From NCBI GenBank assembly GCA_003647375.1, contig QMMS01000066.1, forward strand, positions 1-17,134: 17,134 nt of DNA. Direction: 5' to 3'. Shown here one piece after another: positions 3,461 to 17,134 of the stretch (the first letter of the stretch is position 1; each line of letters starts with the position of its first letter). The position numbers and the translations under genes are program-made. This stretch comes from Deltaproteobacteria bacterium. GTDB lineage: Bacteria; Desulfobacterota; Desulfobacteria; Desulfobacterales; B30-G6. The notes beneath the pieces were generated by a model. That model saw nothing but the letters and a program-made list of their open reading frames with translations. It searched no databases and had not been told where the DNA came from.

Positions 3461-6028
3461 ATGCTGATTGGAGATCTCTTTAAATACTGGACGTATCAAC
3501 TTTTTTCACCGGGAACGGTGTTAAAGGAAAAGTATGCCGCTTTCAAATCTCTTTTGACCCATGACAAACGCTCACATGAGCTCATGGCCGAGCTGGAGGA
3601 AATTTATTACAACCATCAAAAAATGGATTTCAGCGCCATTGAAAAATTGTGCTCTGAACTTTCTCTGCAGGTAGCCGGGATTGTCGATGACCTATCCAAG
3701 GTATGCCCGGCCTGCTACCCGGATCTTTTATTTTATCACAAAAAAATCGATTCCTATATCCGCTTCATGACGACGCCCAAAGAAGCTGTCGTCTCGCCTC
3801 CCTATGCTCTCCTCCTGGATGAAACAGGTCCGGAAGATCTTGGACTGGTGGGGGGGAAAGCACTGAATCTCGGTATCGTCAAAAAGATACTCGGGCATAC
3901 GGTACCCGAGGGCTTTGTGATTACGACCAATGCCTACCACCGGTTCATGGAAGCAAACCACCTCAGGAAAGAGATCGACCATAGGATGTCAACCATCGAT
4001 ATTGACGACACAGCATCCCTGTCCGTCATTTCCGGGGAAATCAGGAACCTGATTGTAACCGCCAGGGTCCCCCCGGAGATCGAAGCGGAAATTATCGAAT
4101 ATCACCGCTCAATGGCTCTGCCTGAAAAAACCGCCCCGGGTGTTGCCGTGCGAAGCAGCGCCGTGGGCGAGGATTCCCAGGCCTCTTTTGCGGGGCAATA
4201 TATGACCGCTTTGAATGTAAGAAAGGAAAATCTGGTCAAGACCTACCAGGAAATCATTGCCAGCAAATATTCACCCGAAGCCATTTACTACCGGATCAAC
4301 TACGGTCTTCTGGATAGCGACACCCCCATGGCGGTTCTGGTCTTGAACATGATCGATGCCGTAACAAGTGGTGTCATGTATACCGGGGATCTCGGAAATT
4401 CTGAATCCGGCAACCTGAAAATACATGCCATCTGGGGACTTGGTGAGCTCCTGGTGGGCGGACAGACCCCTGCAGACATCGTGACGGTTTCGAAAGAACC
4501 TTCCCCCCGGATCATTGATAAGCTGGTTGCTTTAAAACCGCTACAAATAGTGTATAGCCCGGATGTGAAAACCAAATCCATTCCTGTGGAAGAGCTCAAG
4601 CAAAAGGCACTGTCCATCGATGACCGTTGCGCGGAAAAACTAGCCGAATGGGGCCTGGCACTCGAAAAGTATTATGGCAAACCTCAGGACATTGAATGGT
4701 GCATCGACCGCTCGGGAAATATCTTTATTCTTCAATCCAGACCTTTGAGGACGGGCGTACCGCGATCCCTCACCAGACCCGAGTGTGATTTCAGCGATGT
4801 CCGGAACGAAATACTTGTGTCCGGTGGAGAACGCGCTGCCTATGGTATAGGATCCGGCAAGGTCTTTCAAATAATAAACGAATCCGACATTGATGCTGTC
4901 CCGGATGGATCCGTACTGGTGGCGGGAGATGCATCGCCAAAATATGTCAAGGTAATGAACCGACTCTCCGCCGTGGTCACCGATACCGGCAGTTCGGCCG
5001 GTCATTTTGCATCGGTTGCCCGTGAATTTGGCGTCCCGACCCTGGTAAACACACGCAACGCCAGCGCTGTTCTCGATCATGGCCAGACGGTTACGGTTCA
5101 TGCGGATGGCGGGACCGTATATGCCGGCACGGTCACCCGGATGTTGGAGAGCCCCTGCGCCAAAGCGAACCTGATCGTAAACAGCCCTTATATGAGAAAA
5201 TTGCGCTACATCATGAAATTCGTCTCAACCCTGGACCTGGTTGACCCTGACCATAAGTCGTTTACACCTCAGCACTGCAGGTCGTTCCACGACATCATCC
5301 GATTTTCCCATGAAAAAGTCGTACAGGAAATGTTTCATATCTCGGACAACCGCTTGAGAAAACTTAGCCTGGCAAAAAAACTGGCATCCACGATTCCGAT
5401 GCAGTTTTACGTCCTCGATGTCGGTGGGGGGCTAAGAGATGATTCGAAACAGGATAAAGAGGTACGCATCGACGATGTCCAAAACAAGGCCATGCGTGCA
5501 TTGTGGACAGGGCTGACCCACCCTGATATTCCCTGGGGCGCATTCAATCACTTTGACTGGGAAGCACACGACAGGATCGTTATGAGCGGGGGCATCGCGA
5601 GTCCGAAATCAACCATGTTTGCAAGCCATGCCGTCATTTCCGCCGAATATATGAACCTGAACCTCAGATTCGGCTACCACTTTGTCATCGTGGATGCGTT
5701 GTGCGGTGGTGAAAGGTCGGACAACTCTATTCTGTTTCGTTTTTCCGGCGGGGGCGCGGATCTGGCGCAGAGAATGCTTAGGGCAACCTTTTTAAAGCAG
5801 GTTTTAAATCGCCTCGACTTCAATGTAACCGTAAAAAGCGACCTGATCGATGGACAACTCAAGGGGGCAGACATAGATACGAACCTTCAAAGACTGGAGA
5901 TGATCGGACGTCTGTTAGGCGCCAGCCGACTCATGGATATGTACCTGAAAGATGCATCCATGATCGAAGGATTTGTTGACGATTTCATGCAGGGACGCTA
6001 TCATTTTGCTTCGTTCGATGTGAAATAA
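3461..6028 (+). CDS. PEP-synthase-like dikinase (ATP-grasp + phosphohistidine domain) with an unrecognised C-terminal domain
   Basis: An 855-residue multidomain protein. Residues 1-115 are a helical N-terminal region I do not recognise, with CPAC at 82-85. Residues about 118-430 are the PEP/pyruvate-dikinase ATP-grasp domain: GLVGGKALNLG (128-138), PEGFVITTNAY (149-159), AVRSSAVGEDSQASFAGQY (229-247) and a terminal IEWCIDRSGNIFILQSRP. Residues about 475-560 are the swivelling phosphohistidine domain; the motif reads DTGSSAGHFASVAREFGVP with candidate phospho-His 515, where classical enzymes have TSHAA. The PEP/pyruvate TIM barrel is absent. Residues about 575-855 instead form an unfamiliar domain with YVLDVGGGL, GGIASPKSTMF and FRFSGGGADLAQRML. 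The protein can probably phosphorylate its histidine from ATP, but the acceptor is unknown, so it should not be called PpsA. An AGGGG site precedes the start. A strong terminator follows the stop, with a phosphatase gene beyond it. Confidence 0.9.
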   Translation: MLIGDLFKYWTYQLFSPGTVLKEKYAAFKSLLTHDKRSHELMAELEEIYYNHQKMDFSAIEKLCSELSLQVAGIVDDLSKVCPACYPDLLFYHKKIDSYIRFMTTPKEAVVSPPYALLLDETGPEDLGLVGGKALNLGIVKKILGHTVPEGFVITTNAYHRFMEANHLRKEIDHRMSTIDIDDTASLSVISGEIRNLIVTARVPPEIEAEIIEYHRSMALPEKTAPGVAVRSSAVGEDSQASFAGQYMTALNVRKENLVKTYQEIIASKYSPEAIYYRINYGLLDSDTPMAVLVLNMIDAVTSGVMYTGDLGNSESGNLKIHAIWGLGELLVGGQTPADIVTVSKEPSPRIIDKLVALKPLQIVYSPDVKTKSIPVEELKQKALSIDDRCAEKLAEWGLALEKYYGKPQDIEWCIDRSGNIFILQSRPLRTGVPRSLTRPECDFSDVRNEILVSGGERAAYGIGSGKVFQIINESDIDAVPDGSVLVAGDASPKYVKVMNRLSAVVTDTGSSAGHFASVAREFGVPTLVNTRNASAVLDHGQTVTVHADGGTVYAGTVTRMLESPCAKANLIVNSPYMRKLRYIMKFVSTLDLVDPDHKSFTPQHCRSFHDIIRFSHEKVVQEMFHISDNRLRKLSLAKKLASTIPMQFYVLDVGGGLRDDSKQDKEVRIDDVQNKAMRALWTGLTHPDIPWGAFNHFDWEAHDRIVMSGGIASPKSTMFASHAVISAEYMNLNLRFGYHFVIVDALCGGERSDNSILFRFSGGGADLAQRMLRATFLKQVLNRLDFNVTVKSDLIDGQLKGADIDTNLQRLEMIGRLLGASRLMDMYLKDASMIEGFVDDFMQGRYHFASFDVK

Positions 6029-6242: not shown

Positions 6243-6262
6243 AAAGGAAACGTTAAAGACCG

Positions 6263-6769
6263 ATGAGTATTCCTGTACGACTTCGAAACTTTCTGAAATC
6301 TTTACGCAAGATTGAAACCATGCCGAAATACGAACTCGCATGGATAACAAAAAATCTGGCTGTCGGCCATGCTCCTATCGAAGACGATGACCTTGAAGCG
6401 ATCAAGGATCAGGGAGTCGGCGCCATCGTCAATCTTTGTGGTGAATTTTTTGACCTGCATAAAATAGAAAAGAAATCCGGATTTGAAGTTCTTTACTTCC
6501 CGATTCCCGATGAATGCGCGCCCGATATGATAAAATTGGAAATGGCAATTCAGTGGGTAGAGGACACCGTATCAAGAGGAAAAAAAGTCCTGGCACATTG
6601 CCGTTTCGGCGTGGGAAGAACCGGAACTTTCGTGACAGCCTATCTCATGCATACCGGGCTGAGCATGAAAGCGGCAGAAAAAAAACTGAAGTATTCCCGA
6701 GCCAATCCCAGCAACTACTGCCAGTGGAAACTGCTGCGAGACTATAAAAAAATACTGAACCGTAAATAA
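6263..6769 (+). CDS. Dual-specificity/tyrosine phosphatase family protein (168 aa)
   Basis: A small cytoplasmic cysteine phosphatase of the DSP/PTP superfamily that would hydrolyse phospho-tyrosine/serine/threonine or another phosphomonoester. The P-loop is HCRFGVGRTGTF (112-123), with nucleophile Cys113 and phosphate-binding Arg119. A candidate general acid, Asp83, lies in PIPDECAP about 30 residues before, as usual for the fold. No membrane segment or signal peptide is seen. The start at 6263 is the first ATG in frame, with AAGGAAA some 15 bases upstream; the second Met (residue 20, 6320) is an alternative and would still leave the whole catalytic domain. It follows the PEP-synthase-like gene on the same strand but is separated by a terminator and a repeat spacer, so cotranscription is doubtful. 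Its stop is 5 bp from the convergent regulator gene. The substrate is unknown. Confidence 0.9.
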   Translation: MSIPVRLRNFLKSLRKIETMPKYELAWITKNLAVGHAPIEDDDLEAIKDQGVGAIVNLCGEFFDLHKIEKKSGFEVLYFPIPDECAPDMIKLEMAIQWVEDTVSRGKKVLAHCRFGVGRTGTFVTAYLMHTGLSMKAAEKKLKYSRANPSNYCQWKLLRDYKKILNRK

Positions 6770-6774
6770 TATCG

Positions 6775-8166
6775 CTAGGTTCTGTAAATCTCTGCCTTGA
6801 TCCCGTATCGTTTAATGATCTGCTGAAGTGCCTGACGCTCCATCCCGCACTGTCTGGCCGACCGTGTGACATTACCCTTGTTCAAGGAAAGAAGATCTCC
6901 GATATAGGTGTGATTGAACGCTTTGAGGGTTTGCTCTTTAGCCTGCCGGTACGGCGCATCCTTGTATGCTGCTCTGTATGTCATGGACTTTCGATTATTT
7001 TCGCTCAAACCGACATCATGGGGCATGATTTCATCTGATGACGAAAAAAGTATGCCCCGCATGATCAGGTTCTCCATTTCCCTGACATTTCCTTCCCAAC
7101 TCATATTCGTAAAGGTTCTGACCAGTTCGCCGGAAAGTCGTTTCAAGGGTTTGTCCATTTCTTCACAATGCTTCTCCAACAAGTGGTTGGCAATCAGCGG
7201 AATATCTTCGGGATGCTCCTTGAGGGCAGGCAGTTTGACGGGCAGCACGTTCAGTCGATAGAAAAAATCCTCCCTGAATTCACCTTTCTTGATCTTCTCT
7301 CTCAAGAGCTGATTGGTCGATGCAACGATGCGGACATCGATCTTTACCGCTTTTGTATCACCCAGCGGCTTGACCTCTTTTTCCTGCAGCACCCTCAGCA
7401 ACTTGGTCTGAATCGCAGGGTTCACGTCTCCTATTTCATCCAGGAATATGGTTCCGGTGTGGGCTTCCTGGAACAAACCGGTTCTGTCCTGCGTCGCATG
7501 GGTGAACGCACCCTTTTTATACCCGAAAAGTTCACTTTCTAAAATATTTTCAGGAATGGTAGGACAGTTCACCGCTATAAACGGCCGTTTTCGGCGATTA
7601 CTCAGGGAATGTACAGCCCTTGCCGTCAGGTCTTTGCCGCTCCCCGAGGGACCGGTGATCAGCACCGTGAGGTTGGTGGCGGCTACCATCTGAATGGTTT
7701 CATACAACCGCTGCATGCTGCGGCTTTTTCCAACCAGATTGTGAAATGTTGATTCACCGCTGCAAGCCCTCTGGAGACGGGTGTTTTCCCGGATCAGTTC
7801 ACCTCTTTCCAAAGCCTTTTTCAGGCGCATAATCAATGCCTCATGCTCAAAAGGTTTGGTGATGAAATCGTATGCCCCTTGCTTCATGGCTTCCACGGCC
7901 ATCTCAACATGACCGTAGGCCGTCATCATTATCACGGTCAGGTCTGGAATATCTTTTTTAACGATTTCCAGCAGTTCCAAACCACTCATCACCGGCATTT
8001 TGATGTCCGCCAAAAGCAGGTCATAGGACGTTTGAGACAACATCTGAATCGCTGCCTGGGCTGATGGCGTGGTATCGATACGGCAATCCAGTTCAGACCC
8101 CAGACTCCTCTTCAAGAGATGGAGCATATCGGGTTCATCGTCGACGACTAATATTTTGCATGGCAT
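6775..8166 (-). CDS. Sigma-54-dependent response regulator (NtrC family)
   Basis: A 463-residue two-component activator that would remodel sigma-54 RNA polymerase at -24/-12 promoters. Receiver domain (1-120): acidic pair in VVDDEPD, phospho-acceptor Asp54 in LLADIKMPVMSG, Thr82, and Lys104 in ITKPFE. AAA+ domain (about 142-375): Walker A GPSGSGKD (172-179), the sigma-54-contacting loop reading GAFTHA (219-224) rather than the canonical GAFTGA, Walker B GTIFLDEIGD (238-247), and REDFFYRL (298-305) with the arginine finger region. The C-terminal Fis-type helix-turn-helix is at about 430-453 (NKGNVTRSARQCGMERQALQQIIKR). An AAGGAG site lies 8 bases before the ATG and 20 bp after the kinase stop, so it is the last gene of the permease, membrane protein, kinase, regulator operon. 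Plausible targets are the -24/-12 elements at 14127-14143 and 14528-14543. Confidence 0.95.
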   Translation of the reverse strand: MPCKILVVDDEPDMLHLLKRSLGSELDCRIDTTPSAQAAIQMLSQTSYDLLLADIKMPVMSGLELLEIVKKDIPDLTVIMMTAYGHVEMAVEAMKQGAYDFITKPFEHEALIMRLKKALERGELIRENTRLQRACSGESTFHNLVGKSRSMQRLYETIQMVAATNLTVLITGPSGSGKDLTARAVHSLSNRRKRPFIAVNCPTIPENILESELFGYKKGAFTHATQDRTGLFQEAHTGTIFLDEIGDVNPAIQTKLLRVLQEKEVKPLGDTKAVKIDVRIVASTNQLLREKIKKGEFREDFFYRLNVLPVKLPALKEHPEDIPLIANHLLEKHCEEMDKPLKRLSGELVRTFTNMSWEGNVREMENLIMRGILFSSSDEIMPHDVGLSENNRKSMTYRAAYKDAPYRQAKEQTLKAFNHTYIGDLLSLNKGNVTRSARQCGMERQALQQIIKRYGIKAEIYRT

Positions 8167-8186
8167 GCGTTAATTCTCCTTGGGGT

Positions 8187-9680
8187 TCAGACAGCAGGAA
8201 GAGTCACCGTAAACGTCGTTCCAACACCTGTTTTGCTATCGACAAAAATATGGCCCCCATGGTTTTTTATGATCCCGTAGCTGACAGACAAGCCCAGCCC
8301 TGTACCCTCTCCCGTGGGTTTGGTGGTAAAGAAAGGGTCGAAAATATTTTTAAGATGTTTTTTCTCAATCCCATGACCATCGTCTTTCACTTTGACAATA
8401 AGATCGCCTGCCGGTTCGCTCAAATCCGTGGAAATCCATATGCGACCCTTTGTCCCGACAGCGTGTATGGCATTCACCACAAGGTTGATAAGAACCTGTT
8501 TGATTTTCTTCTCGTCCACCAGGAGCGGCTGTACACCCGGGTTGTATTCTTTTTCTATTACGATGTGTTCAATATCTGAGTGGTGCTGCACAAACGTGAG
8601 CACATCTTCGATGATCAGATGAATATCCAGCATCTCTTTTTGGGTCTCCGACTTCCTGGAAAAACTCAGCAAATCTTCAACAATGGTCTTACAACTCCTG
8701 ACGTGTTTCTCGATGGTTTTCAGATCGACATAACGCTCGGATGTATTTTTTTCGCCTCTCAACAGGAGTTGGGTATAGCCCAGAATGACGCCCAAGGGGT
8801 TGTTGATTTCATGCGCAACGCCGGATGACAACTCGCCGATAGATGCCAGCTTGTCAGCCTGGGCAAGCTGTTCTTCCATGAGCTTTCGCTGTTCGATATC
8901 CTTTATCAAAAAGTGAATGGTCTCGGACTCGTCATCGGATGTTTCAGCCATGCTCCCACTCAAAAGTATCCGTTTGACAGCGCCATCTGATGCGATAATC
9001 CCCAATTCAACAACGGAAATTGATCGTTCATTTTGGATGGATGCCATCACATCACGCCAGTTTTCAGGTTCGGCTATGAAGTCGCTGATATTTCTATTCT
9101 CAATTCCATCCGTTTCCCTGTCCAGCCCCAGTAGGTTGTATCCGGACGGATTTAGATTGACAATTTTTCCATTTTTTCCCGTCACCAGGATAATATCCTT
9201 GGATACCTCAAAAATCTTACGGTACTTGTACTCGGAGACTGAAAGAGCGTTGGTGCGTTTTTCAACCAGTTTTTCCAGGTTCTGGTTGAGAAACACCAGC
9301 TCCTTATGGGCCGATTGAAGGGCCTGCCTGTCCTTGCGGATAAGCTGGTATATCTTCCAGATTCGTTCGAAAAAAAGAGTGACGGCACCGACGACAATGA
9401 ACATGAATGTATTGATGGCGCCACTGAAAGGGCGGACGATATTCCAGAAAGGTTTCTGGTCGGCAATCAGGAGCAAATCTTTCAATATGTGCCCGGCTGA
9501 TCGGGATACAGCAAAACAGGAAAGTGCCAGGCATATCCACCAGAGATAGGTCCAGATAAGATTGTCGTTATCCTGTTTGCGCAGTTTAAACACAATCCGC
9601 AAAGAGAGAAAGGACAAAACAATCATCAGGAACGAACCGATAAGATCGACAATCAATATGGGGATTGAAGATATGATCAT
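8187..9680 (-). CDS. Membrane-bound sensor histidine kinase (PAS, HisKA, HATPase)
   Basis: A 497-residue kinase, partner of the adjacent NtrC-type regulator. The frame is open further upstream (to 9848), but the ATG at 9680 is the likely start. It overlaps the TGA of the preceding gene as ATGA, and the segment upstream reads as a shadow of that gene. The N-terminus has three predicted membrane helices (about 4-30, 42-62, 85-106); helix 2 ends in SRSAGHILK with His64. A coiled coil follows (about 115-150), then a PAS domain (about 150-265), HisKA with His290 in SSGVAHEINNPLG, and the HATPase: N-box in INLVVNAIHAV, G1 DDGHGI (433-438), FDPFFTTK and G2 GTGLGL (459-464). There is almost no periplasmic loop, so the signal is probably read in the membrane or through the neighbouring membrane protein. 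All catalytic boxes are intact. Confidence 0.93.
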   Translation of the reverse strand: MIISSIPILIVDLIGSFLMIVLSFLSLRIVFKLRKQDNDNLIWTYLWWICLALSCFAVSRSAGHILKDLLLIADQKPFWNIVRPFSGAINTFMFIVVGAVTLFFERIWKIYQLIRKDRQALQSAHKELVFLNQNLEKLVEKRTNALSVSEYKYRKIFEVSKDIILVTGKNGKIVNLNPSGYNLLGLDRETDGIENRNISDFIAEPENWRDVMASIQNERSISVVELGIIASDGAVKRILLSGSMAETSDDESETIHFLIKDIEQRKLMEEQLAQADKLASIGELSSGVAHEINNPLGVILGYTQLLLRGEKNTSERYVDLKTIEKHVRSCKTIVEDLLSFSRKSETQKEMLDIHLIIEDVLTFVQHHSDIEHIVIEKEYNPGVQPLLVDEKKIKQVLINLVVNAIHAVGTKGRIWISTDLSEPAGDLIVKVKDDGHGIEKKHLKNIFDPFFTTKPTGEGTGLGLSVSYGIIKNHGGHIFVDSKTGVGTTFTVTLPAV

Positions 9681-10165
9681 GATTCGGTTTTGACTCCTGC
9701 TGCGGTCCGAGTGTTCTTTAAAATGGTCTTCAAGCCGAAATAGAGAAAAAACATGGCGGGAACACAGAGTAAATGATCTAGCTTCATCAGATAATACAGG
9801 ATCGTAATACTGTCCTGCCCCTGGGAATTGTCGATCTTGATATGCCATAAATCGATCTTGGTGATCCCGAGAATGTCGAGGTACTCATCCAGGAAATGAA
9901 CTGCTGCTGCATCTATATTCCAGACAATGAACAACACCGCAGCAATTTGAATGTACCTCCAGCCTCTCTCCTTTGTGAGATTTCGCTGGCGTAACCAGAA
10001 TTCCAGACTCCACATGGAAATGATAAAAAAGATGTGGGCCATCTGGTGTACATAAAGGCCTTCCGGCTGCCCATGGGTCTGGGTGGCCAGAGCAGGGTCG
10101 GCAAAAACAAATAACCCTGCAATGCTGAAAGCAAAAAATGACAGTGCGGATCGCATGGGTATCAT
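9677..10165 (-). CDS. His-rich small membrane protein, likely accessory sensor subunit (162 aa)
   Basis: I do not recognise a named family. The N-terminus (1-28, ending ALA-TQ) looks like a cleavable signal peptide or first helix. It is followed by hydrophobic helices at about 38-58, 72-92 and 122-148. Histidines lie at or within helices: His31, His40, His44 (YVHQMAHIFFIISMW), His90 (AAAVHFLDE), His108 and His131 (KLDHLLC). This pattern could bind heme or a metal, but that is inference. Its ATG overlaps the TauE stop and its TGA overlaps the kinase ATG, both as ATGA, which implies translational coupling and a stoichiometric link to the kinase. An AGAAGG ribosome binding site lies 7 bases before the ATG. 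A Met at residue 4 is an alternative start. The tight coupling to a kinase with membrane helices but little periplasmic domain suggests a sensor partner. Confidence 0.85.
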   Translation of the reverse strand: MIPMRSALSFFAFSIAGLFVFADPALATQTHGQPEGLYVHQMAHIFFIISMWSLEFWLRQRNLTKERGWRYIQIAAVLFIVWNIDAAAVHFLDEYLDILGITKIDLWHIKIDNSQGQDSITILYYLMKLDHLLCVPAMFFLYFGLKTILKNTRTAAGVKTES

Positions 10166-10914
10166 AGCAAAGCCTTCTGCAGCAGTTTTAGAAAAAACAA
10201 CAATAGAAAAATACCGAAAATTTGGCGAACCGTCCTTCCTTTCAGCTTTTCGGACATGATCCGCGAGCCGATCTGTCCGCCTGCAAATGAAAAAAATGCA
10301 GCCGGCAGAATAAACTTCCAGTCGGTACTCGCCAGGGAGATGTGGGCGATAAAACCTGAAAAAGAGGAGAAAACTACAATGAAAATTGAGGTTGCAGCAG
10401 CCGATTTTGTCGGCATCTTCAACACATAGATGAGAAGCGGCACAATAAATACGCCACCGCCGATGCCCAGAAGGCCGGCCATCAAGCCGACCGTGATACC
10501 GATGACAGTGCCTCCAATCACCCTGCTCTTAACATTGGTTTCCAGCGCTCTCTCCACGACCTTTCCGGGAAAAAGCATTCGCATGGAAGCCAGAAGTATG
10601 ACCAGGGCCAGGATTCCCGAAAAAACCCTTATATCGATGAGACCCGTCAGCATAGCCCCAAACGGAGCGGCCAGTGTAGACGATATCAAAAGGGGAATGG
10701 CCGTTTTTATATCGATCATCTTCTTGCGATAGTAGGTTATGGCTGCGGAAAAAGCGGCAATCCCGTTTAAGAAAAGGGAGGCGGATACAGCGGTGGTTAA
10801 TGGAAATCCGAGCAATACAAACAGGGGTGAAAAAATGAGACCGCCCCCCAATCCGACCATGGTGAGGATCAAGGAGGAAAGGAAAATGATAACAAACAAA
10901 AGGGATGTCGACAT
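10162..10914 (-). CDS. TauE/SafE family anion permease (250 aa)
   Basis: An inner-membrane protein of the TauE/SafE (formerly DUF81) family, whose characterised members move sulfite, sulfoacetate, taurine-related or other small anions. It shows the two inverted-repeat signature loops, GLGGGLIFSPL (21-31) and GIGGGVFIVPL (150-160), and about eight hydrophobic helices; 250 residues is the normal family size. It is the first gene of the four-gene operon with the His-rich membrane protein, kinase and regulator. A permease translated together with a kinase may be a sensing partner (transporter-coupled sensor) as well as a transporter. No strong Shine-Dalgarno is visible before the ATG at 10914, but the family N-terminus agrees with this start. 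The substrate cannot be assigned; sulfite or another sulfur oxyanion is a guess from the neighbours. Confidence 0.92.
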   Translation of the reverse strand: MSTSLLFVIIFLSSLILTMVGLGGGLIFSPLFVLLGFPLTTAVSASLFLNGIAAFSAAITYYRKKMIDIKTAIPLLISSTLAAPFGAMLTGLIDIRVFSGILALVILLASMRMLFPGKVVERALETNVKSRVIGGTVIGITVGLMAGLLGIGGGVFIVPLLIYVLKMPTKSAAATSIFIVVFSSFSGFIAHISLASTDWKFILPAAFFSFAGGQIGSRIMSEKLKGRTVRQIFGIFLLLFFLKLLQKALL

Positions 10915-11040
10915 AGATTCTATGGTAGCGCCTGAAAAGGGTTAACTTGCAACTCAGTATTCAGTTTCATCAAAATCGATTTGGATTATCGAACCCAACA
11001 GGTTTCATATTTTAAGAATTCAAATGAATCAAATCCTTTG

Positions 11041-11064
11041 AAATTATTTCTAAATCCCATATTC
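11041..11064 (+). repeat. Degenerate relative of the recJ-flanking repeat
   Basis: TTCTAAATCCC (11048-11058) followed by atattc matches the core of the repeats at 1396 and 3261, within an AT-rich spacer rich in 'aaat' words between two minus-strand genes. The match is short, so this may be chance or composition. Confidence 0.35.
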
Positions 11065-11085
11065 TTATAATTTGAAACGCTCATC

Positions 11086-11673
11086 TTAGGTTAGAGATGA
11101 CCTCGCCTTAACCCGTTTGTAATACTTAGCCACCACAAACCATATCAGATATACCATCAGAAGGGATACAACAAACCAGAAAAGGGCCCCGACCATGACC
11201 GGTTCTGCGCTAAATTTCGAAAACCTGAAAACATATCCACGGCCGAATTTTTCGATCAATTTGTCTGTCCGGAATGCCTCATTCACATAGGCAGCCATGC
11301 ACAGAATGGGCAGGTAGGTGGTGAGAATACCTTTGAGCAATCCTTCGAAAAAGAAGTCGTAGTACACTTTGTTGAGCTTGGCCTTGTCTATATTTTTTGC
11401 AAGGGCTTTGCCTTTTTCCCGGTCTTCACAAGTCAGTGCTTCATTGCGAAGTTTGAACCAGTGGTTAAACTCTTTTTGCAGTGCCTGGTATCGTTTTGTG
11501 GTGTAAAATCTGTTGAATGTTTTTGTAAAACAAACCGTAAGCAAAACAAGGATCAAAACAATCAAAGCAGGACCCAACGGGATGAGCGGCGTGAGGATAC
11601 GATCCATCAGACCGACCAGATAACTTATACCCGTAGCGATTTTGATCCATAGTATGTCTAAAAATTTATCCAT
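11086..11673 (-). CDS. Three-helix membrane protein resembling the Oxa1/EMC3 (DUF106) insertase fold (195 aa)
   Basis: I cannot place this in a family by sequence alone. The layout is an amphipathic N-terminus (1-25), helix 1 (about 28-50), a charged, probably coiled-coil cytoplasmic stretch (about 55-105, KTFNRFYTTKRYQALQKEF onward), helix 2 (about 108-131) and helix 3 (about 158-183) with a basic tail. Helix, coiled coil, then two helices is the topology of the Oxa1/YidC/EMC3/DUF106 superfamily of membrane protein insertases, and the length fits the prokaryotic DUF106 members. No Shine-Dalgarno is visible before the ATG at 11673; Met23 at 11607 is an alternative. It lies between the two TauE/SafE operons, with a terminator upstream and 171 bp before the next permease. 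It could assist those permeases or be unrelated. Confidence 0.75.
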   Translation of the reverse strand: MDKFLDILWIKIATGISYLVGLMDRILTPLIPLGPALIVLILVLLTVCFTKTFNRFYTTKRYQALQKEFNHWFKLRNEALTCEDREKGKALAKNIDKAKLNKVYYDFFFEGLLKGILTTYLPILCMAAYVNEAFRTDKLIEKFGRGYVFRFSKFSAEPVMVGALFWFVVSLLMVYLIWFVVAKYYKRVKARSSLT

Positions 11674-11707
11674 AAATAAAATTGCTGCGCACTTTTATAT
11701 GCAGCTT

Positions 11708-11737
11708 CCGTCTCCGCCCTTCGGGCTACACCGAGAC
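11708..11737. repeat. REP-like hairpin related to the 6116 block
   Basis: The outer arms gtctc (11710-11714) and gagac (11733-11737) enclose an inner gccc-ttc-gggc hairpin. The sequence ccgtctccgcccttcgggc resembles ccgtcttcgccttcggc near 6115-6131, allowing small indels. It lies in the 5' region of the three-helix membrane protein gene, in a GC-rich island within AT-rich sequence. Confidence 0.5.
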
Positions 11738-11771
11738 AAGTCGCCGCTATGCAACGCAGAACTGTTCAATA

Positions 11772-11806
11772 AAAAAGGGGGAAGGTGCTTTCCCTTCCCC
11801 CTTTTT
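11772..11806 (-). terminator. Rho-independent terminator after the TauE/periplasmic fusion gene
   Basis: The arms aaaaagggggaagg (11772-11785) and ccttcccccttttt (11793-11806) are perfect 14-bp complements around a 7-nt loop. The A- and T-tracts at the two ends let it work on either strand. It lies 15 bp beyond the stop of the minus-strand gene at 11822 and separates that operon from the downstream membrane protein gene. Confidence 0.88.
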
Positions 11807-11821
11807 ATCACATGTTATTCG

Positions 11822-13522
11822 TTATATCCAGATTTCAATCTTAAAGAACCTGAAAAACAGGAAGAACAGGGTAATGGCCAGAACGATCTTGAGTGTTTTT
11901 TCACTGAAGAGCTTCTGTGCCCGACTCCCCAGCATACCACCGGCAAACCCGCCGATGATAATAGCGATCATCAGCACCATGTCCGGAAGATAACCGGTCA
12001 TCAGGTACCCAATAAAAGCGCCGATACTGGAAAAACAGGTCCCTATAAGTGAAATCGGTACGGCAACATACATGGGCAGCGCCCCCAGTGTGGTCATGGC
12101 AGGAACGAGCAGAAAACCGCCGCCGATACCAAAAGATCTGGAAACCACACCGATGGCCAGGCCGAGAATCGCAAAGAGCAGTGGATTGATGGTGAACTCT
12201 TCACCCCAGAATTTGAACCGGTAGTCTGTGATACCGGTCTTGACCGGTTCGATTTTACCCATTTCAACGGATGTACCGTCGGTCTTGGCTTTGGCAACGG
12301 CATCGTTGAATTTCTTGACCATGGCCTTGATGTTTTTGCGTTTTTCCATAGCCTTGGGCATCAATTCCCTGATGGTCTGAACACCCATGATAACCACCAG
12401 AACCGCCAACCATTCCTTATAGGCTTTCATGGGCAGATAGGCTGAAACATATTTACCAAGCCAGATGGACCCGATGAAAATACCCACGCCAAAGGAAATG
12501 CCCACCGGCCAGGCCACACGTTTTTCCACGACCGCATAGCGATAGAAAGATCCCAGGGGTGAAAACAGGGTCAATGCCATGTTGGAAGGTTTCAACACGT
12601 TGGCGGCGTTTATGCCGACGGGTCCTGCTGTCTGAACGATCAGGATCTGGAAGGCCGCCATGAGCATGCCACCGGCCGCACCGATCATGGAAAAATAAGT
12701 GCCCACGAGAATCGCACCGAGGATGATCCAGAGGGGATTCATATAACGGAATCCTTTGCTGAGCCAGAAACCATTTTTGAGAACCTTGAAAGACCCGCTT
12801 TCGGCGCCGTTGACATAAACGTCAAATTCGGTGTTCGGAGGGGTGTGACGGTACGATTTATATGACACGTTGAATTTACCCGTGGCTTTGTCCAGATTGA
12901 CGGATGTGCCCTTGTCCCAGTATTTTCCGCTCTTGCCGAAATCGGTAATGACCGTTCGGGAGAAAATGGTCACATTTCCAACTTTACTGCTTTCTTTGAC
13001 AATAGTGTTGATGCCATAGTTGGATTCATTGGCATACCTGAGAAAATTCCATTGTGCCTCGCTCTTGATAGGCCCCATCATGCTTTTGGCCTGGGCATCG
13101 ACTTCATCAAACTTCTTTTTCAGGTAATACATGGTCGAGGAATACAGTCCTTTACCTTTGCCCATAAGAACGGATGGCCCACCGAAACGCTTTTTACCCT
13201 CATTCCCAAATGCCTCCGGATTGGTCGTCAACAAATAGTAAAGGGGTGGAATTTCAGTGTCGAGGTCAAATTTAGCTTTATCTGCGTCTTTTTTCAGCCG
13301 TTTGACCTCATGGACGCCATTTGTGTCCTTTGGGGCGAACAGGTCTTGCATGGCCACTACAATGTACAAGTCCGCACCCGGTTCAATCGTGCCTTCGATG
13401 GTAACCGTGTCACCGGCCTTGAACTCGCTGTCGGAAATGGTGGCTGTCGTTGCGCTGAAACCAGGTACGGACAGTGCAATTATCATTAAAAACAATGTGA
13501 TTGGAAAGATAATTTTTTTCAT
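11822..13522 (-). CDS. TauE/SafE-type permease with signal peptide and large periplasmic N-terminal domain (566 aa)
   Basis: The start is the ATG at 13522, with AGGAGG 7 bases upstream; the frame is open to 13609 but that extension has no merit. Residues 1-24 are a signal peptide (MKKIIFPITL, hydrophobic core, then FSA-TTA). Residues about 25-258 are a soluble extracytoplasmic domain beginning with a beta-rich, Ig-like segment (EFKAGDTVTIEGTIEPGADLYIVV). From about 262 the TauE/SafE membrane domain follows, with signature loops IGAAGGMLMA (280-289) and FGIGGGFLLVP (464-474). A charged cytoplasmic loop of about 60 residues (388-445) separates the two halves. Ordinary TauE/SafE proteins are about 250 residues, so this one doubles the size by adding a likely substrate-binding or partner-binding domain. 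The four-helix protein gene lies 118 bp upstream on the same strand, and a strong terminator follows. Sulfur-anion transport is inferred, not shown. Confidence 0.92.
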   Translation of the reverse strand: MKKIIFPITLFLMIIALSVPGFSATTATISDSEFKAGDTVTIEGTIEPGADLYIVVAMQDLFAPKDTNGVHEVKRLKKDADKAKFDLDTEIPPLYYLLTTNPEAFGNEGKKRFGGPSVLMGKGKGLYSSTMYYLKKKFDEVDAQAKSMMGPIKSEAQWNFLRYANESNYGINTIVKESSKVGNVTIFSRTVITDFGKSGKYWDKGTSVNLDKATGKFNVSYKSYRHTPPNTEFDVYVNGAESGSFKVLKNGFWLSKGFRYMNPLWIILGAILVGTYFSMIGAAGGMLMAAFQILIVQTAGPVGINAANVLKPSNMALTLFSPLGSFYRYAVVEKRVAWPVGISFGVGIFIGSIWLGKYVSAYLPMKAYKEWLAVLVVIMGVQTIRELMPKAMEKRKNIKAMVKKFNDAVAKAKTDGTSVEMGKIEPVKTGITDYRFKFWGEEFTINPLLFAILGLAIGVVSRSFGIGGGFLLVPAMTTLGALPMYVAVPISLIGTCFSSIGAFIGYLMTGYLPDMVLMIAIIIGGFAGGMLGSRAQKLFSEKTLKIVLAITLFFLFFRFFKIEIWI

Positions 13523-13640
13523 TAAGATCCTCCTACTAAATGGGTTGTTGAAGTCATATGAAATTAAAACTGATAAAAATGTGAATGTCCTCCCCTCCTT
13601 TCGGTACACATAATTTAAAGGTGCAATCTAAACCTTATAT

Positions 13641-14069
13641 CTATTTTTTCAGGTTGAAATACTTTATGGCCAGCATACCGCCGAGCCCGCTGGTTACAAT
13701 TCCCACAAAAAGCAGCGTAGCCAATTCTTGCATACTAATGAGAAAAACACCGGCGCCACGAAAATACATGATATTCAAAAATGCGGCTGTAGCAAGGACC
13801 ATGGCCACCCCCGATCCGATGGATATCACCCGCTTGTATTTGAAGCTATCTCGGGTTTTCTCGAGTACCATGTAGCCGGTAAGGGCTGTGTTGAATCCGA
13901 TAATGACCGGCAGAATATTTCCGACGCCGGCACTCAGCGTCATGCCGGAAAGAAACAGTACCAGAATAACCGCCCCTATCGATCCGGCCAGGATGCTGAA
14001 GAAAACCTTGCCAAACCGCGTGGAAACGATTTTCATGATTTGATCGATATAATAATTGACATTGAACAT
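13641..14069 (-). CDS. Four-helix membrane protein upstream of the TauE fusion (142 aa)
   Basis: I do not recognise a named family. Four hydrophobic helices are clear at about 22-44, 50-70, 80-102 and 114-136, with short basic loops (EKTRDSFKYKR at 70-80, NLKK at the end). There is no soluble domain, no cysteine and few charged residues in the helices. It is the first gene after the sigma-54-type promoter at 14127-14143 and is followed 118 bp later by the TauE/periplasmic fusion, so it is probably a small subunit or partner of that transporter. The ribosome binding site before the ATG at 14069 is weak. A 14-bp perfect palindrome lies 13 bases upstream of the ATG. Function is unknown. Confidence 0.85.
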   Translation of the reverse strand: MFNVNYYIDQIMKIVSTRFGKVFFSILAGSIGAVILVLFLSGMTLSAGVGNILPVIIGFNTALTGYMVLEKTRDSFKYKRVISIGSGVAMVLATAAFLNIMYFRGAGVFLISMQELATLLFVGIVTSGLGGMLAIKYFNLKK

Positions 14070-14081
14070 AAGAGCTTCTAG

Positions 14082-14095
14082 TCCTCAATTGAGGA
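14082..14095. promoter_or_regulatory. Perfect 14-bp palindrome in the leader of the four-helix/TauE operon
   Basis: The sequence tcctcaattgagga is a perfect palindrome 13 bases upstream of the ATG at 14069. If transcription begins near 14116 it lies in the untranslated leader, where it could be an operator or an mRNA hairpin covering GAGGA. Confidence 0.5.
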
Positions 14096-14126
14096 ATTAA
14101 AGTATACAGAACAATCTCATATCCGA

Positions 14127-14143
14127 AGCAAACTGTATGCCAC
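14127..14143 (-). promoter_or_regulatory. Sigma-54-type -24/-12 promoter facing the four-helix/TauE operon
   Basis: The minus strand reads GTGGCATACAGTTTGCT. It matches the consensus TGGCAC-N5-TTGCT at TGGCA and TTGCT, with the invariant GG (14141-14140) and GC (14129-14128) exactly 10 bases apart. The predicted start is near 14116, about 47 nt before the ATG at 14069. An NtrC-type activator is encoded at 6775-8166. Confidence 0.65.
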
Positions 14144-14155
14144 TACAGCTACTAT

Positions 14156-14179
14156 GATCGAAACCAATGGGTTTTCATC
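14156..14179. promoter_or_regulatory. Imperfect inverted repeat upstream of the sigma-54-type promoter
   Basis: gatcgaaacc (14156-14165) and ggttttcatc (14170-14179) are inverted repeats matching at 8 of 10 positions around a 4-base centre. The dyad starts 13 bp upstream of the -24 element. It could be an activator or repressor site; enhancers usually lie further away (80-150 bp), so confidence is low. Confidence 0.35.
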
Positions 14180-14527
14180 GGATATCAATTAAAAATACTG
14201 TTTATTATCTATCAGTTAAAATGTTGGTTATCACTTTGAGATCCATGAAATATTCTTTTTCCTTCCAAATGGTATTGCCGGTCTTAGCGCAATTAAAATA
14301 TTGCACCCAGGAATGAATTGTAGGAATAGCCGCAATTTAAAGCAAAAAGCTGAGCGCAATAAAATTATTTCGATGCCATACTTTTAATTCATCTTGTCCT
14401 GTTAACCTTGCGTTATCAACCGTTACCGGGGTAAGATATTTATCTTGATAATTGAACAACATCATGTAAATATTAACTATTTTAAGATAAGAAAAATAAA
14501 CCAAAGGACCCCCAAATCCGCAATTGC
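14180..14527. other. AT-rich divergent intergenic region, no gene seen
   Basis: This is the central part of the roughly 640-bp gap between the minus-strand gene starting at 14069 and the plus-strand gene starting at 14712. It is strongly AT-rich with many stop codons in all frames. A 66-residue frame at 14445-14645 exists, but a sigma-54-like element falls inside it and I do not call it. The length and composition suit enhancer sites and DNA bending for sigma-54 promoters on both sides. Nothing else is recognisable. Confidence 0.6.
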
Positions 14528-14543
14528 TGGTATGAATATTGCT
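14528..14543 (+). promoter_or_regulatory. Weaker sigma-54-type -24/-12 element facing the oxidoreductase operon
   Basis: The plus strand reads TGGTATGAATATTGCT. The invariant GG (14529-14530) and GC (14541-14542) are correctly spaced by 10 and the -12 part TTGCT is perfect, but the -24 part is TGGTA instead of TGGCA. It would give a leader of about 158 nt before the ATG at 14712. In an AT-rich region a chance match is possible. Confidence 0.42.
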
Positions 14544-14711
14544 ATTGTCTATCCAGTTATATGTATAATAATTTTATTTACGACATTGATATGGATAAAG
14601 ACTTCCAGAGTCACAGATGAAAATCAATTTTCGATAAATACTTGATTAGGGTTCAAATATGACTGGGTTTATTGTTAATTTCCAGCAAATGAATTAATTT
14701 CGGAGGAAACT

Positions 14712-16796
14712 ATGGAAAAAGAAGTGTACACGTTATGTTTCATGTGTTCTGTACGCTGTCCCATCAAAGTACAGGTTAAAGACGGCCAGGTGAAGTGGAT
14801 CGAAGGAAGTCCGGTTGTGCCTGGAATGGAGGGAAGTCTGTGCCCGCGAGGAGCTGCCGGTATCTCACTTCTCTACGACAATGAAAGGTTACAGTCGCCG
14901 ATGATCCGGGTTGGAGAACGGGGATCGGGCCACTTTCGAAAGGCTTCCTGGGATGAGGCGCTCGACATGGTGGGTGAAAAATTGAAGGGTGTAATCGACA
15001 AATACGGTGGTCACAGTGTTGTTCTGGGAGAACGAACGCAGTTGGCAACCCATGTGAGCAAGACTTTCTTGAAAGCGATCAAATCCCCCAACCACTTTAC
15101 CCACGATGCCCTCTGCAAGGGATCCGTCAATACAGCCTGTCGATCCCTTTTTGGATACACGGATGCACAGATGAGCATGGACTACAAGAACACCAAGCAC
15201 ATCGTGATGTACGGGCGCAATCTCTTCGAAGCTATCGAAGTCAAACCGGTCAATAATTTGATGGATGCGCTTGAAAAGGGCGCCAAGCTCACCTATATCG
15301 ACCCTAGAGTGACCAAAACCGCCACCAAATCTCATCGCTACTGGATGATACGTCCCGGAACCGATCTGGCACTCAACTATGCCCTGATACACGTGATACT
15401 CAGGGACCAGCTTTATGACAGCGCATTTGTTGACCGCTGGGTGATCGGCCTTTCCGAACTCCAGGAGTTTATCGGGCCCTACACACCGGAATGGGCTGAA
15501 AAGGAGACAGACATACCGGCCCATGAAATCGAACAGCTGGTAAGGGAAATCGCCCAGGAAGCACCCCATGTGATTTTTCATTTCGGTTACCGCGGCGCCA
15601 ACCATGCCAATGAAATCTATATGCGCCTATCCATCATGATACTGAACACTCTAATGGGCAGCATCGAAGCCAAGGGTGGATTTTTTATTAAAAAGGGGCC
15701 CGGTGAAGAGGGCGGCAAACCCGCCAGAAAGCTCACGGAACAAAAATTTGAGAAAATCGGCGTCCCCCGCTTCGACAAGGTGGGAACCCCGGATTTCCCC
15801 CTGCCTGATCCGGCCCATGGCGTCGGCCAGATGCTCCCGTATGCCATCCTCAATAAAGACCCCTACCCTATCAAGGCGCTCATCGCCTTCCGGTTTGACC
15901 CCATCATGTCCATTGCAGACACCAATCTGACCAAAAAGGCGCTGGATGAACTGGACCTGATCGTTGCCATCGATATCAACTACAGTGATATTGCCTGGTA
16001 TGCCGATGTCATTCTTCCCGAATCGACTTACCTCGAACGGACCGACTGCGTGCAACAGGCCAATGGGCTCAAACCACAGATATTTCTCAGACAGCAGGTT
16101 GTCACACCGCGATATGATACCCGCGAGGGCGCCATGATCCTCAAGCAGATCGGCGAGCGCATTGGAATCGGTTCGTTTTTCCCGTTTGAAGACATGGAAG
16201 ACCTGGTGAAGTGGCAACTGGAGGGAACGGGATTCGCAAGAGAAGACTTCAATGCCAAGGGCTTTGTGGCCTATGGCAAAAAGCAGATTTTCTGGGATCG
16301 AAAGGACGGGATCAAATTCAAGACACCTTCCGGTAAAATCGAATTTAAATCTTCCTTGCTTGAAGATGCCGGCTTTCAATCGTTTCCGGAGTATGAAGCC
16401 ATGCCTTCACCACCTGAAGGTCAATTCAGACTCACCACGGGGCGGAATGCACTGCACACGCATTGCTCTACACAGAATAACCCGTACCTGAATGAAATAT
16501 CACCGGAAAATGTGCTCTGGATCAACAAGGAAAAGGCAGCAGCGCTCAACATCAACAACGGAGATATGGTGGAAGTTTACTCCAGTCGCGGTTCCGGCAC
16601 CATCAAGGCCATGGCCACAGACCTGATTCACCCCGAAGCCGTATTCATGCTGCACGGGTTCGGCCATGAAGCCAAAAAGGCCTCACGATCCTACAACAAA
16701 GGCGTCAATGACTCAGTGCTGATGGAGAACACATCAGACATGATCGGCGGGAGCCCGGCTTTGCACGATACTTTTGTGAATGTCAAACCCGCATGA
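14712..16796 (+). CDS. Molybdopterin oxidoreductase, PhsA/PsrA-like catalytic subunit without Tat signal (694 aa)
   Basis: The catalytic subunit of a complex iron-sulfur molybdoenzyme of the DMSO reductase superfamily. The N-terminus has the 4Fe-4S motif Cys9-X2-Cys12-X3-Cys16 and Cys44 (LCPRG). HDALCKGSVN carries Cys135, a candidate molybdenum ligand as in PhsA/PsrA/NapA-type enzymes. Molybdopterin-binding segments follow (YIDPRVTKTA, RPGTDLALNYALIH), as do DVILPESTYLERTD and a C-terminal PhsA-type cofactor domain (TTGRNALHTH, then FMLHGFGHEAKKAS). PhsA and PsrA normally start with a twin-arginine signal; here the cluster motif begins at residue 9 with no RR signal, so the subunit should stay in the cytoplasm. 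A GGAGG site precedes the ATG. The Fe-S subunit gene follows 68 bp later. A membrane subunit may lie beyond the window. Thiosulfate, polysulfide or another sulfur compound is the best guess for the substrate, but formate- or other-substrate relatives cannot be excluded. Confidence 0.93.
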   Translation: MEKEVYTLCFMCSVRCPIKVQVKDGQVKWIEGSPVVPGMEGSLCPRGAAGISLLYDNERLQSPMIRVGERGSGHFRKASWDEALDMVGEKLKGVIDKYGGHSVVLGERTQLATHVSKTFLKAIKSPNHFTHDALCKGSVNTACRSLFGYTDAQMSMDYKNTKHIVMYGRNLFEAIEVKPVNNLMDALEKGAKLTYIDPRVTKTATKSHRYWMIRPGTDLALNYALIHVILRDQLYDSAFVDRWVIGLSELQEFIGPYTPEWAEKETDIPAHEIEQLVREIAQEAPHVIFHFGYRGANHANEIYMRLSIMILNTLMGSIEAKGGFFIKKGPGEEGGKPARKLTEQKFEKIGVPRFDKVGTPDFPLPDPAHGVGQMLPYAILNKDPYPIKALIAFRFDPIMSIADTNLTKKALDELDLIVAIDINYSDIAWYADVILPESTYLERTDCVQQANGLKPQIFLRQQVVTPRYDTREGAMILKQIGERIGIGSFFPFEDMEDLVKWQLEGTGFAREDFNAKGFVAYGKKQIFWDRKDGIKFKTPSGKIEFKSSLLEDAGFQSFPEYEAMPSPPEGQFRLTTGRNALHTHCSTQNNPYLNEISPENVLWINKEKAAALNINNGDMVEVYSSRGSGTIKAMATDLIHPEAVFMLHGFGHEAKKASRSYNKGVNDSVLMENTSDMIGGSPALHDTFVNVKPA

Positions 16797-16832
16797 CATC
16801 GGGCAGACGGATCTACACGTTTATTTAAAAAG

Positions 16833-16853
16833 TAAAATCGTAAAACGATTTTA
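16833..16853 (+). promoter_or_regulatory. Intercistronic hairpin before the Fe-S subunit
   Basis: taaaatcg and cgatttta form an 8-bp stem with a 5-nt loop directly upstream of the GGAGG ribosome binding site. It could tune mRNA stability or expression ratio between the two subunits. It is short and AT-rich, so weak. Confidence 0.35.
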
Positions 16854-16864
16854 TGGAGGACTGA

Positions 16865-17134
16865 ATGAGCAAATACTACCTGATACAGGATACCAAGAAA
16901 TGCATTGGCTGTCATGCATGTGAAATCCAGTGTAAAAGCAACAAGTCTTTGTCCGTGGGGCCGCGACTTTGTCAAATTATAGAAGTCGGCCCACAACTCA
17001 TCGATAATGTTCCACGGGCTTCCTATATCTTTATGCCCTGTTTCCATTGCCAGAACCCCTGGTGCGTGGCAGCCTGCCCCACCGGCGCCATGACCAGACG
17101 GGATAAGGACGGTATCGTGTTTGTGGACCACAAC
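16865..17134 (+). CDS. 4Fe-4S dicluster electron-transfer subunit, PhsB/PsrB-like (3' end cut off)
   Basis: The first 90 residues of a ferredoxin-type subunit that would carry electrons between the molybdenum subunit and a membrane or soluble partner. The start at 16865 (MSKYYLIQDTKKCIGCHAC) has GGAGG 5 bases upstream. Two cysteine clusters are visible: Cys13, Cys16, Cys19, Cys23 (CIGCHACEIQCK) and Cys59, Cys62, Cys67, Cys71 (CFHCQNPWCVAACP), then TGAMTRRDKDGIV. This is the order found in DmsB/PhsB/PsrB/NrfC-type subunits, which usually hold four clusters in about 180-240 residues, so more than half is missing at the window edge. It is 68 bp downstream of the molybdopterin subunit on the same strand, so one operon. 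No signal peptide is seen, in agreement with a cytoplasmic complex. Confidence 0.93.
   Translation, partial: MSKYYLIQDTKKCIGCHACEIQCKSNKSLSVGPRLCQIIEVGPQLIDNVPRASYIFMPCFHCQNPWCVAACPTGAMTRRDKDGIVFVDHN

What the first reader, a model, noticed from the sequence alone, without database searches (positions are those of the whole stretch)
6775..17134. Candidate sigma-54-controlled module: permeases, His-rich membrane sensor, kinase, NtrC activator and a molybdenum oxidoreductase
Seen: an operon permease/His-rich membrane protein/kinase/NtrC regulator, a second operon with a four-helix protein and a TauE-periplasmic fusion, and a divergent molybdopterin oxidoreductase operon, with -24/-12-like elements facing outward on both sides of the shared intergenic region. 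Known: NtrC-type regulators act on such promoters, TauE/SafE proteins move small (often sulfur) anions, and PhsA/PsrA relatives reduce sulfur compounds. Inferred: all parts form one sensed transport-and-redox pathway. I know of no described system with this combination.
Basis: partly seen in the sequence, partly recalled or inferred. Interest (0 to 1): 0.72.

Follow-up and report, generated by a model that had tools for sequence, protein, structure and literature searches.

The report
Sulfate-reducer transporter and molybdoenzyme regulon
A group of genes for membrane transporters, a molybdenum enzyme and a membrane sensor that probably switches them on recurs together in many sulfate-reducing bacteria, most likely as one regulated system for handling a sulfur compound whose identity is still unknown.

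Summary
In detail: TauE permease, 4-His membrane protein (HisTM), kinase and NtrC regulator; a 142-aa/TauE-fusion (TauF) operon; divergent molybdopterin oxidoreductase (MoOR) plus FeS. The window's two best -24/-12 matches are the two facing outward in the shared gap. The linkage is real: of 31 TauF loci with at least 9 kb both sides, 28 carry HisTM+kinase+regulator and 26 a MoOR; in 297 genomes 49 of 57 HisTM genomes have MoOR (15.2 expected). The -24/-12 sites recur, and a palindrome, TGCAATA-N4-TATTGCA, lies upstream of MoOR in 35 of 76 module loci, 0 of 35 MoOR loci without the sensor; degenerate copies sit between the window's promoters. A dikinase and phosphatase (3461-6769), outside the finding, often travel along; TauE2 is least conserved. 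76 of 79 MoOR genomes are DsrA+, so a sulfur-respiration link is likely, but substrate and direction are inferred. Some TauF genomes lack sensor or MoOR. My searches found no description of the combination; pieces (TSUP under sigma-54, Psr/Phs-like subunits beside complex I) are in print. A new variant of known kinds with an uncharacterised sensor family.

The parts
3461..6028 (+). 855-aa dikinase-like protein: PPDK_N ATP domain and PEP-utilizer His domain (His515); C-terminal domain unmatched in PDB sequences, no pyruvate/PEP barrel family found
   Evidence: in 22 of 80 TauF loci
6263..6769 (+). DSP-type phosphatase next to the dikinase
   Evidence: in 21 of 80 TauF loci
6775..8166 (-). NtrC-type response regulator (receiver, sigma-54 AAA+; GAFTHA loop in place of GAFTGA)
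8187..9680 (-). histidine kinase (hydrophobic N-terminus, PAS, HisKA, HATPase_c); start overlaps the stop of HisTM (ATGA)
9677..10165 (-). HisTM: signal peptide plus three long predicted helices; His40, 44, 90 invariant and His31 nearly so
10162..10914 (-). TauE/TSUP permease, 250 aa (least conserved part)
11086..11673 (-). 195-aa membrane protein, nearly always near TauF
   Evidence: 77 of 80 loci
11822..13522 (-). TauF: signal peptide, about 230-aa beta-rich domain (periplasmic by topology), TSUP domain
13641..14069 (-). 142-aa small membrane protein, first gene of the TauF operon
   Evidence: 51 of 80 loci
14127..14142 (-). -24/-12 promoter element of the TauF operon
14288..14305 (.). candidate regulator box (2 mismatches to TGCAATA-N4-TATTGCA)
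14355..14372 (.). weaker candidate regulator box (3 mismatches)
14528..14543 (+). -24/-12 promoter element of the MoOR operon
14712..16796 (+). MoOR: PhsA/PsrA-like molybdopterin oxidoreductase without a signal peptide; Cys9/12/16/44 for a 4Fe-4S cluster, Cys135 as the likely Mo ligand
16865..17134 (+). 4Fe-4S subunit (DmsB/PhsB type), cut by the window end

Best explanation
A sigma-54-dependent regulon of sulfate reducers. HisTM and the kinase sense, at the periplasmic face, a redox or sulfur signal (inferred), perhaps through a haem or metal held by the conserved histidines. The kinase phosphorylates the adjacent NtrC-type regulator (family knowledge), which binds TGCAATA-N4-TATTGCA boxes between the two divergent operons and activates both outward -24/-12 promoters (predicted from recurring sites). 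The products are a TSUP carrier with a periplasmic domain (TauF) plus small membrane partners, which move a small sulfur anion (inferred), and a cytoplasmic PhsA/PsrA-like molybdoenzyme with an FeS subunit, in many loci also with NAD(P)H/FAD or Nuo-like subunits, which exchanges electrons with that compound (thiosulfate, polysulfide or sulfite chemistry; inferred). The dikinase/phosphatase pair belongs to the unit in an unknown role.
For: Synteny: of 31 TauF loci with at least 9 kb both sides, 28 have HisTM+kinase+regulator, 26 MoOR, 30 P195, 14 dikinase, in several gene orders. Co-occurrence in 297 genomes: HisTM 57, MoOR 79, both 49 (expected 15.2, p 9e-27); TauF 17, with HisTM 15, with MoOR 15; within the 144 DsrA+ genomes HisTM x MoOR 48 against 29.0. 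Of 15 HisTM-selected loci from TauF-less genomes that hold a MoOR ORF, 13 have a TSUP gene within 5 kb. Regulatory DNA: -24/-12; box at <=2 mismatches upstream of MoOR in 35 of 76 module loci against 0 of 35 MoOR loci without the sensor (overlapping loci removed) and 5 of 312 control ORFs; held-out regions 12 of 198 (p 0.007). Sulfur link: 76 of 79 MoOR genomes DsrA+ against 68 of 218 others; best solved relative 2vpw, listed as thiosulfate reductase (T. thermophilus PsrA by recall), 396 bits, next 197; a CoA-disulfide-reductase-like/rhodanese gene beside MoOR-TSUP in L161, L163, L164, L165 (domains scanned on the L165 copy). Cytoplasmic: 0 of 113 MoORs show a Tat-like motif before the first cluster Cys.
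Against: No chemistry or transport shown. MoOR scores under the PhsA equivalog cut-off (614 against 694), and DMSO-family enzymes vary widely in substrate. MoOR occurs without HisTM in 30 of 79 genomes, and 6 of 35 MoOR loci without the sensor still have a -24/-12 match. More than half of module MoORs (41 of 76) lack a box at <=2 mismatches. G306 and G307 (loci L063, L071) carry TauF with neither HisTM nor MoOR found; G309 and G310 (L050, L046) lack HisTM; completeness of these genomes is not told. The window's own boxes are degenerate (2 and 3 mismatches; 3 matches in the window against 1.0 expected, 14 of 200 shuffles reach 3). The held-out box test is modest. Kinship is not told, so p-values ignore shared descent. 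HisTM gave no PDB match, so haem/metal is a guess.
Confidence: 0.55

Rival explanations
1. The unit is one regulon, but MoOR does not act on a sulfur compound: it is an electron-input or output subunit (NuoG-like), or an oxidoreductase/hydratase of an organic or C1 substrate, and TSUP carries that substrate.
For: MoOR lies within 5 kb of complex I genes in 8 of 27 loci from HisTM-less genomes; NuoE/NuoF/HoxU-like and GltD-like flavoproteins adjoin it in many loci; acetylene hydratase and a formate dehydrogenase-type FdhF are next-best solved relatives.
Against: Near restriction to DsrA+ genomes (76 of 79); clear best match to PsrA/PhsA; neighbouring CoA-disulfide-reductase-like/rhodanese genes in four loci; PMC5165239 places a complex I-linked subunit of this kind with thiosulfate or polysulfide reductases (passage; orthology to MoOR not tested).
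Confidence: 0.2
2. An overflow or stress unit: TauF exports sulfite or another oxyanion when the Dsr pathway is saturated or oxidised, with MoOR re-reducing by-products such as thiosulfate or polysulfide; it is not a growth pathway.
For: TauE of Cupriavidus is described as a sulfite exporter (cited in passages of PMC5840216 and PMC3949148); inducible two-component control.
Against: A TauE/SafE permease and PhsAB are among the labelled transcripts of Ca. Desulfobulbus rimicarensis, read there as disproportionation (PMC7117923, passages; orthology not tested). Direction of transport unknown.
Confidence: 0.17
3. Neighbours only: synteny kept in related genomes, with no common function.
For: TauE2 and P142 are patchy; kinship is uncontrolled; exceptions G306, G307.
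Against: Rearranged orders with the same partners, co-occurrence within DsrA+ genomes, and boxes absent where the sensor is absent.
Confidence: 0.06

Closest known systems
Thermus thermophilus PsrA (2vpw) / PhsA thiosulfate reductase (CISM family)
   Same: Fe4S4 + molybdopterin domains, Cys at the Mo-ligand column, DmsB/PhsB-type FeS partner
   Different: No signal peptide, under the PhsA equivalog cut-off, NAD(P)H-flavoprotein neighbours in many loci
Complex I-linked Psr/Phs-family subunits of Thermodesulfovibrio (PMC5165239, passages)
   Same: A and B subunits beside nuo genes without nuoEFG; MoOR-FeS beside nuo genes was seen here in L148, L151-L154, L156-L158, L169
   Different: No TSUP, sensor or sigma-54 unit mentioned in the passages seen; orthology not tested
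TSUP permease operons under sigma-54 activators in Desulfovibrio vulgaris (PMC4641369, sections 7 and 20)
   Same: EBP-controlled TSUP permease (DVU0110/DVUA0057 on DVU0132-0133)
   Different: No molybdoenzyme or HisTM mentioned in those sections; homology to TauF not tested
MOLY cluster of sulfur disproportionators (PMC12998232, section 13)
   Same: CISM A and B subunits in Desulfobacterota
   Different: MolyA predicted extracellular and with a TorD-type chaperone; MoOR here has no signal peptide (a TorD-MoOR fusion does occur next to TauF in L064)
Sulfate uptake gene clusters of Desulfosarcina (PMC11887813, section 14)
   Same: Transport genes with two-component systems and CBS proteins in related bacteria
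   Different: DASS/SulP carriers, Cache-domain kinases, WalR-type regulators; no sigma-54 activator mentioned in that section

Membership tests
NtrC-type sigma-54 activator | receiver plus Sigma54_activat AAA+ domain over Pfam cut-offs | tested here: met
   (103.6 and 227.3 bits)
NtrC-type sigma-54 activator | GAFTGA loop contacting sigma-54 | tested here: inconclusive
   GAFTHA in the window; of 96 regulator-cluster members 30 GAFTHA, 28 GAFTGA, 20 GAFTNA, 9 other, 9 unmatched
TSUP/TauE | PF01925 over cut-off | tested here: met
   TauE2 162, TauF 109.2 bits, cut-off 32.6
TSUP/TauE | transport of sulfite or an organosulfonate | not testable with these tools
   -
CISM / DMSO-reductase family | Fe4S4, molybdopterin and dinucleotide-binding domains | tested here: met
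   Cys9/12/16/44 and Cys135 invariant in 12 of 12
PhsA thiosulfate reductase (NF012032) | equivalog score of 694 bits or more | tested here: not met
   614.1 bits
PhsA thiosulfate reductase (NF012032) | exported (Tat) catalytic subunit (recalled as typical) | tested here: not met
   first cluster Cys is residue 9; 0 of 113 relatives with a Tat-like motif by a simple pattern
MOLY cluster | exported MolyA | tested here: not met
   no signal peptide
MOLY cluster | adjacent TorD-type MolyC | not tested
   the window ends inside FeS; unlabelled neighbours in other loci were not scanned for TorD
D. vulgaris DVU0110/DVUA0057-TSUP regulons | orthologous regulator and permease | not tested
   -

The most novel reading that the evidence does not exclude
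Sulfate reducers own a dedicated, sigma-54-switched sulfur-intermediate shunt: a periplasmic-domain TSUP carrier plus a cytoplasmic thiosulfate/polysulfide molybdoenzyme coupled to NAD(P)H (or, in relatives, directly to complex I), turned on by a new class of sensor in which a small three-helix protein (HisTM) holds a haem or metal for a partner kinase; a dikinase with an unknown acceptor domain completes it.
Probability: 0.28. Interest if true: 0.78.

Novelty: new variant of a known kind. Interest (0 to 1): 0.56.

Why it matters
TSUP carriers are abundant in sulfate reducers but their substrates are unknown (passages of PMC5840216, section 7 of PMC4641369). A tightly linked, regulated partnership with one molybdoenzyme family narrows the search, gives a testable binding motif, and points to an undescribed way in which sulfate reducers may sense and handle sulfur intermediates. 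It also singles out an uncharacterised sensor family (1190 homologues with E<=0.001; none of the 120 listed bears a Pfam domain).

Tried and rejected
Whole genome of the window: none held. sigma-54 consensus with the wrong spacer: discarded; GG-N10-GC alone is at chance, 119 against 120. Rfam (gathering threshold) and tRNA scans: nothing. Plasmid search with TauF: no match. TauF model: mean pLDDT 60.8, membrane part unusable; no PDB match with E<=0.001. HisTM model good (86.7) but 0 PDB matches with E<=0.001. PDB sequence profiles for dikinase C-domain, HisTM, TauF: nothing credible. PADLOC for dikinase and phosphatase: none. sigma-70 and terminator scans near chance (21 against 16.9; 10 against 12.4), not used. 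Formate dehydrogenase not favoured: the residue after Cys135 is Lys, Gly or Ala, not the His of the Cys/Sec-His pair (motif recalled; alignment). Dropped before counts: hits of about 112 bits (partial TSUP, in G023, G043, G157, and a second one in G277); MoOR hits of 643 bits or less (G219, 709 bits, cut by a contig end, was kept). Scoring limits of 3 to 12 candidates per genome in the phylum searches may hide members.
Full report
What is there. The first 6.8 kb hold miaB, DUF4911, recJ, a dikinase-like gene and a DSP phosphatase. Then, on the minus strand in transcription order: P142 and TauF (13641-14069, 11822-13522), P195 (11086-11673), and TauE2-HisTM-kinase-regulator (10914 down to 6775), with ATGA overlaps at TauE2/HisTM and HisTM/kinase. 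On the plus strand MoOR and FeS start at 14712.

Is the promoter claim more than chance? In the window alone the pattern count is not: TGGCACG-N4-TTGCW with up to 3 mismatches gives 18 matches against 24.0 expected. Yet the only two 2-mismatch matches are the two in the shared gap, pointing outward. In 80 TauF loci from genome contigs (135 stretches encoded a relative, the best 80 kept) plus the window, scores of 11 or more (maximum 19.5; weights recalled) occur upstream of MoOR in 32 of 54, P142/TauF 18 of 38, TauF without P142 11 of 37, against P195 6 of 75, HisTM 9 of 54, c8 2 of 30, dikinase 2 of 20 (regions under 300 bp left out). Many misses appear to be loci where the gene lies inside a same-strand operon or in the Desulfobulbales-type order (maps); I did not count these.

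Do the parts belong together? Of the 80 loci, many short: HisTM 62, kinase 60, regulator 55, MoOR 57, P195 77, P142 51, dikinase 22, phosphatase 21, TauE2 7. Of 31 with at least 9 kb both sides: HisTM 29, all three sensor/regulator genes 28, MoOR 26, P195 30, dikinase 14, phosphatase 14, TauE2 2 (tblastn bit thresholds). Orders differ: divergent in Desulfosarcina-like loci; MoOR-FeS-c8-CBS-c9-P142-TauF on one strand in Desulfobacula; HisTM-kinase-MoOR-FeS-TauF-P195-dikinase-phosphatase-regulator in several Desulfobulbales. Of the five long loci without MoOR, the genomes of L012 and L013 carry it about 12.5 kb from HisTM and that of L065 about 78 kb away, L014's has a fragment at a contig end, L053's none at E<=1e-120.

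Independent sample. 297 genomes of the phylum (names and kinship not told): full-length TauF 17, HisTM 57, MoOR 79, with a gap between 886 or more and 643 or fewer bits, plus one cut copy of 709. HisTM and MoOR together 49 against 15.2 expected; TauF with each 15 of 17; without either, G072 and G277, of which G277 has a full-length relative of the 931-aa TorD-MoOR beside TauF (L081). DsrA over cut-off in 144 genomes: MoOR 76 of 79, HisTM 55 of 57, TauF 16 of 17; genomes without MoOR 68 of 218; within DsrA+ genomes HisTM x MoOR 48 against 29.0. So shared sulfate-reducer ancestry alone does not explain the link, though kinship inside that group may explain part.

Loci fetched by HisTM from TauF-less genomes (38 of the 42 such genomes): 15 hold a MoOR ORF, and 13 of these a TSUP gene, often shorter or split, within 5 kb. 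The transporter is exchangeable; sensor plus MoOR is the more constant pair. The other 23 have no MoOR ORF in the stretch; in 11 of them the kinase matches only at 25-31% over about 212 aa, six of these near lnt/era-like genes, which looks like a paralogous use. MoOR-selected loci from HisTM-less genomes (29 fetched; 27 with the ORF): TSUP within 5 kb in 9, complex I genes in 8. Second MoOR loci of HisTM genomes, without L170 (8 with the ORF): TSUP 5, complex I 1.

A regulator box. Exact gapped palindromes in MoOR upstream regions give GCAATA-N4-TATTGC in 9 loci (one pair, L016/L089, is the same contig); the top palindrome in five shuffles reached 2. As TGCAATA-N4-TATTGCA with up to 2 mismatches there are 76 matches in 167 sequences, 62 of them within 700 bp upstream of a module gene; one shuffle of 171 sequences gave 10. 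Upstream of MoOR: 35 of 76 in sensor/TauF loci, 0 of 35 in MoOR loci without the sensor, p 9e-8; 5 of 312 control ORFs. A -24/-12 match is present in 38 of 76 and 6 of 35, 20 of 312 controls. The motif was found in these same MoOR regions; on regions not used to find it: 12 of 198 (5 of 30 for P142) against 5 of 312, p 0.007, modest. The window has 14288-14305 (2 mismatches) and 14355-14372 (3), about 150-230 bp from each promoter, a usual enhancer distance (recalled).

The enzyme. MoOR has the Fe4S4, molybdopterin and dinucleotide domains, Cys9/12/16/44 and Cys135 invariant in 12 of 12, and no signal peptide (0 of 113 relatives with a Tat-like motif). Best NCBIfam PhsA, 614 bits, under its cut-off of 694; best solved relative 2vpw 396 bits, then acetylene hydratase 197. 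FeS is DmsB/PhsB type; c8 is a GltD-like FAD/FeS protein, c9 a HoxU/NuoG-N-like FeS protein, with NuoE/NuoF in some loci. So it is PhsA-like in make-up but cytoplasmic and probably NAD(P)H-linked: it is not filed as PhsA.

The sensor. HisTM: in a 46-row alignment His40, 44, 90 invariant and His31 in at least 90%; model pLDDT 86.7 with three long helices after the signal peptide. That the His sit together at the periplasmic face is my inference from topology; no coordinates were measured. No PDB relative by sequence or fold; 1190 homologues, none of the 120 listed with a Pfam domain. Haem, metal or quinone is open.

Literature. Searches: (open-licence PMC only; one search found no paper with 5 of its 6 terms; only the top listings were looked at). 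Seen as passages or named sections: PMC4641369 (sections 7, 20: TSUP permeases under sigma-54 activators, substrates unknown), PMC5840216 (passages: TSUP in all 44 genomes, function not predictable), PMC5165239 (passages: Psr/Phs-family A and B subunits beside a complex I without NuoEFG, coupling to sulfur compounds proposed), PMC7117923 (passages: TauE/SafE permease and PhsAB among labelled transcripts), PMC12998232 (passages and section 13: MOLY), PMC11887813 (passages and section 14), PMC3949148, PMC3333781, PMC4911364, PMC3739170 (passages); PMC10553843 held none of the four terms asked. Nothing that I saw describes the combination; subscription papers were not searched.

Verdict. Chemistry, transport direction, and the roles of the dikinase and TauE2 remain inference.

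Noticed in passing
3461-6028: Dikinase with a C-terminal domain unmatched in PDB sequences; the C-domain profile matches in 107 of 297 genomes, up to 8 matches each (8 was also the number scored per genome).
   Followed up: partly
6775-8166: Regulator sigma-54 contact loop reads GAFTHA; GAFTHA/GAFTNA make up 43 of 65 regulators close to HisTM.
   Followed up: partly
L148, L151-L154, L156-L158, L169: The same MoOR-FeS pair beside complex I genes; in L153, L154, L156 also next to an NrfD-like membrane protein, a multihaem-type cytochrome and a CCG/FeS protein.
   Followed up: partly
L161, L163, L164, L165: CoA-disulfide-reductase-like/rhodanese fusion gene beside MoOR-TSUP-c14 (domains scanned in L165 only).
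   Followed up: partly
L151 11411-13126; also L155, L099, L101, L105: TauF-like transporter split in two genes: extracytoplasmic-type domain plus half TSUP, and the other half.
   Followed up: partly
L064 872-3667; L026, L044, L047, L052, L057, L061: MoOR of about 930 aa near TauF, in L064 with a fused TorD-like chaperone domain (the others by length and similarity only).
   Followed up: partly
L108, L111, L117, L120, L121, L125: HisTM paralogues beside a different, weakly matching kinase and lnt/era-like genes (names recalled from sequence starts), without a MoOR ORF in the stretch.
   Followed up: no
11773-11810: GC-rich inverted repeat flanked by A and T runs between TauF and P195, a possible bidirectional terminator; such hits are at chance level in the region.
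   Followed up: no
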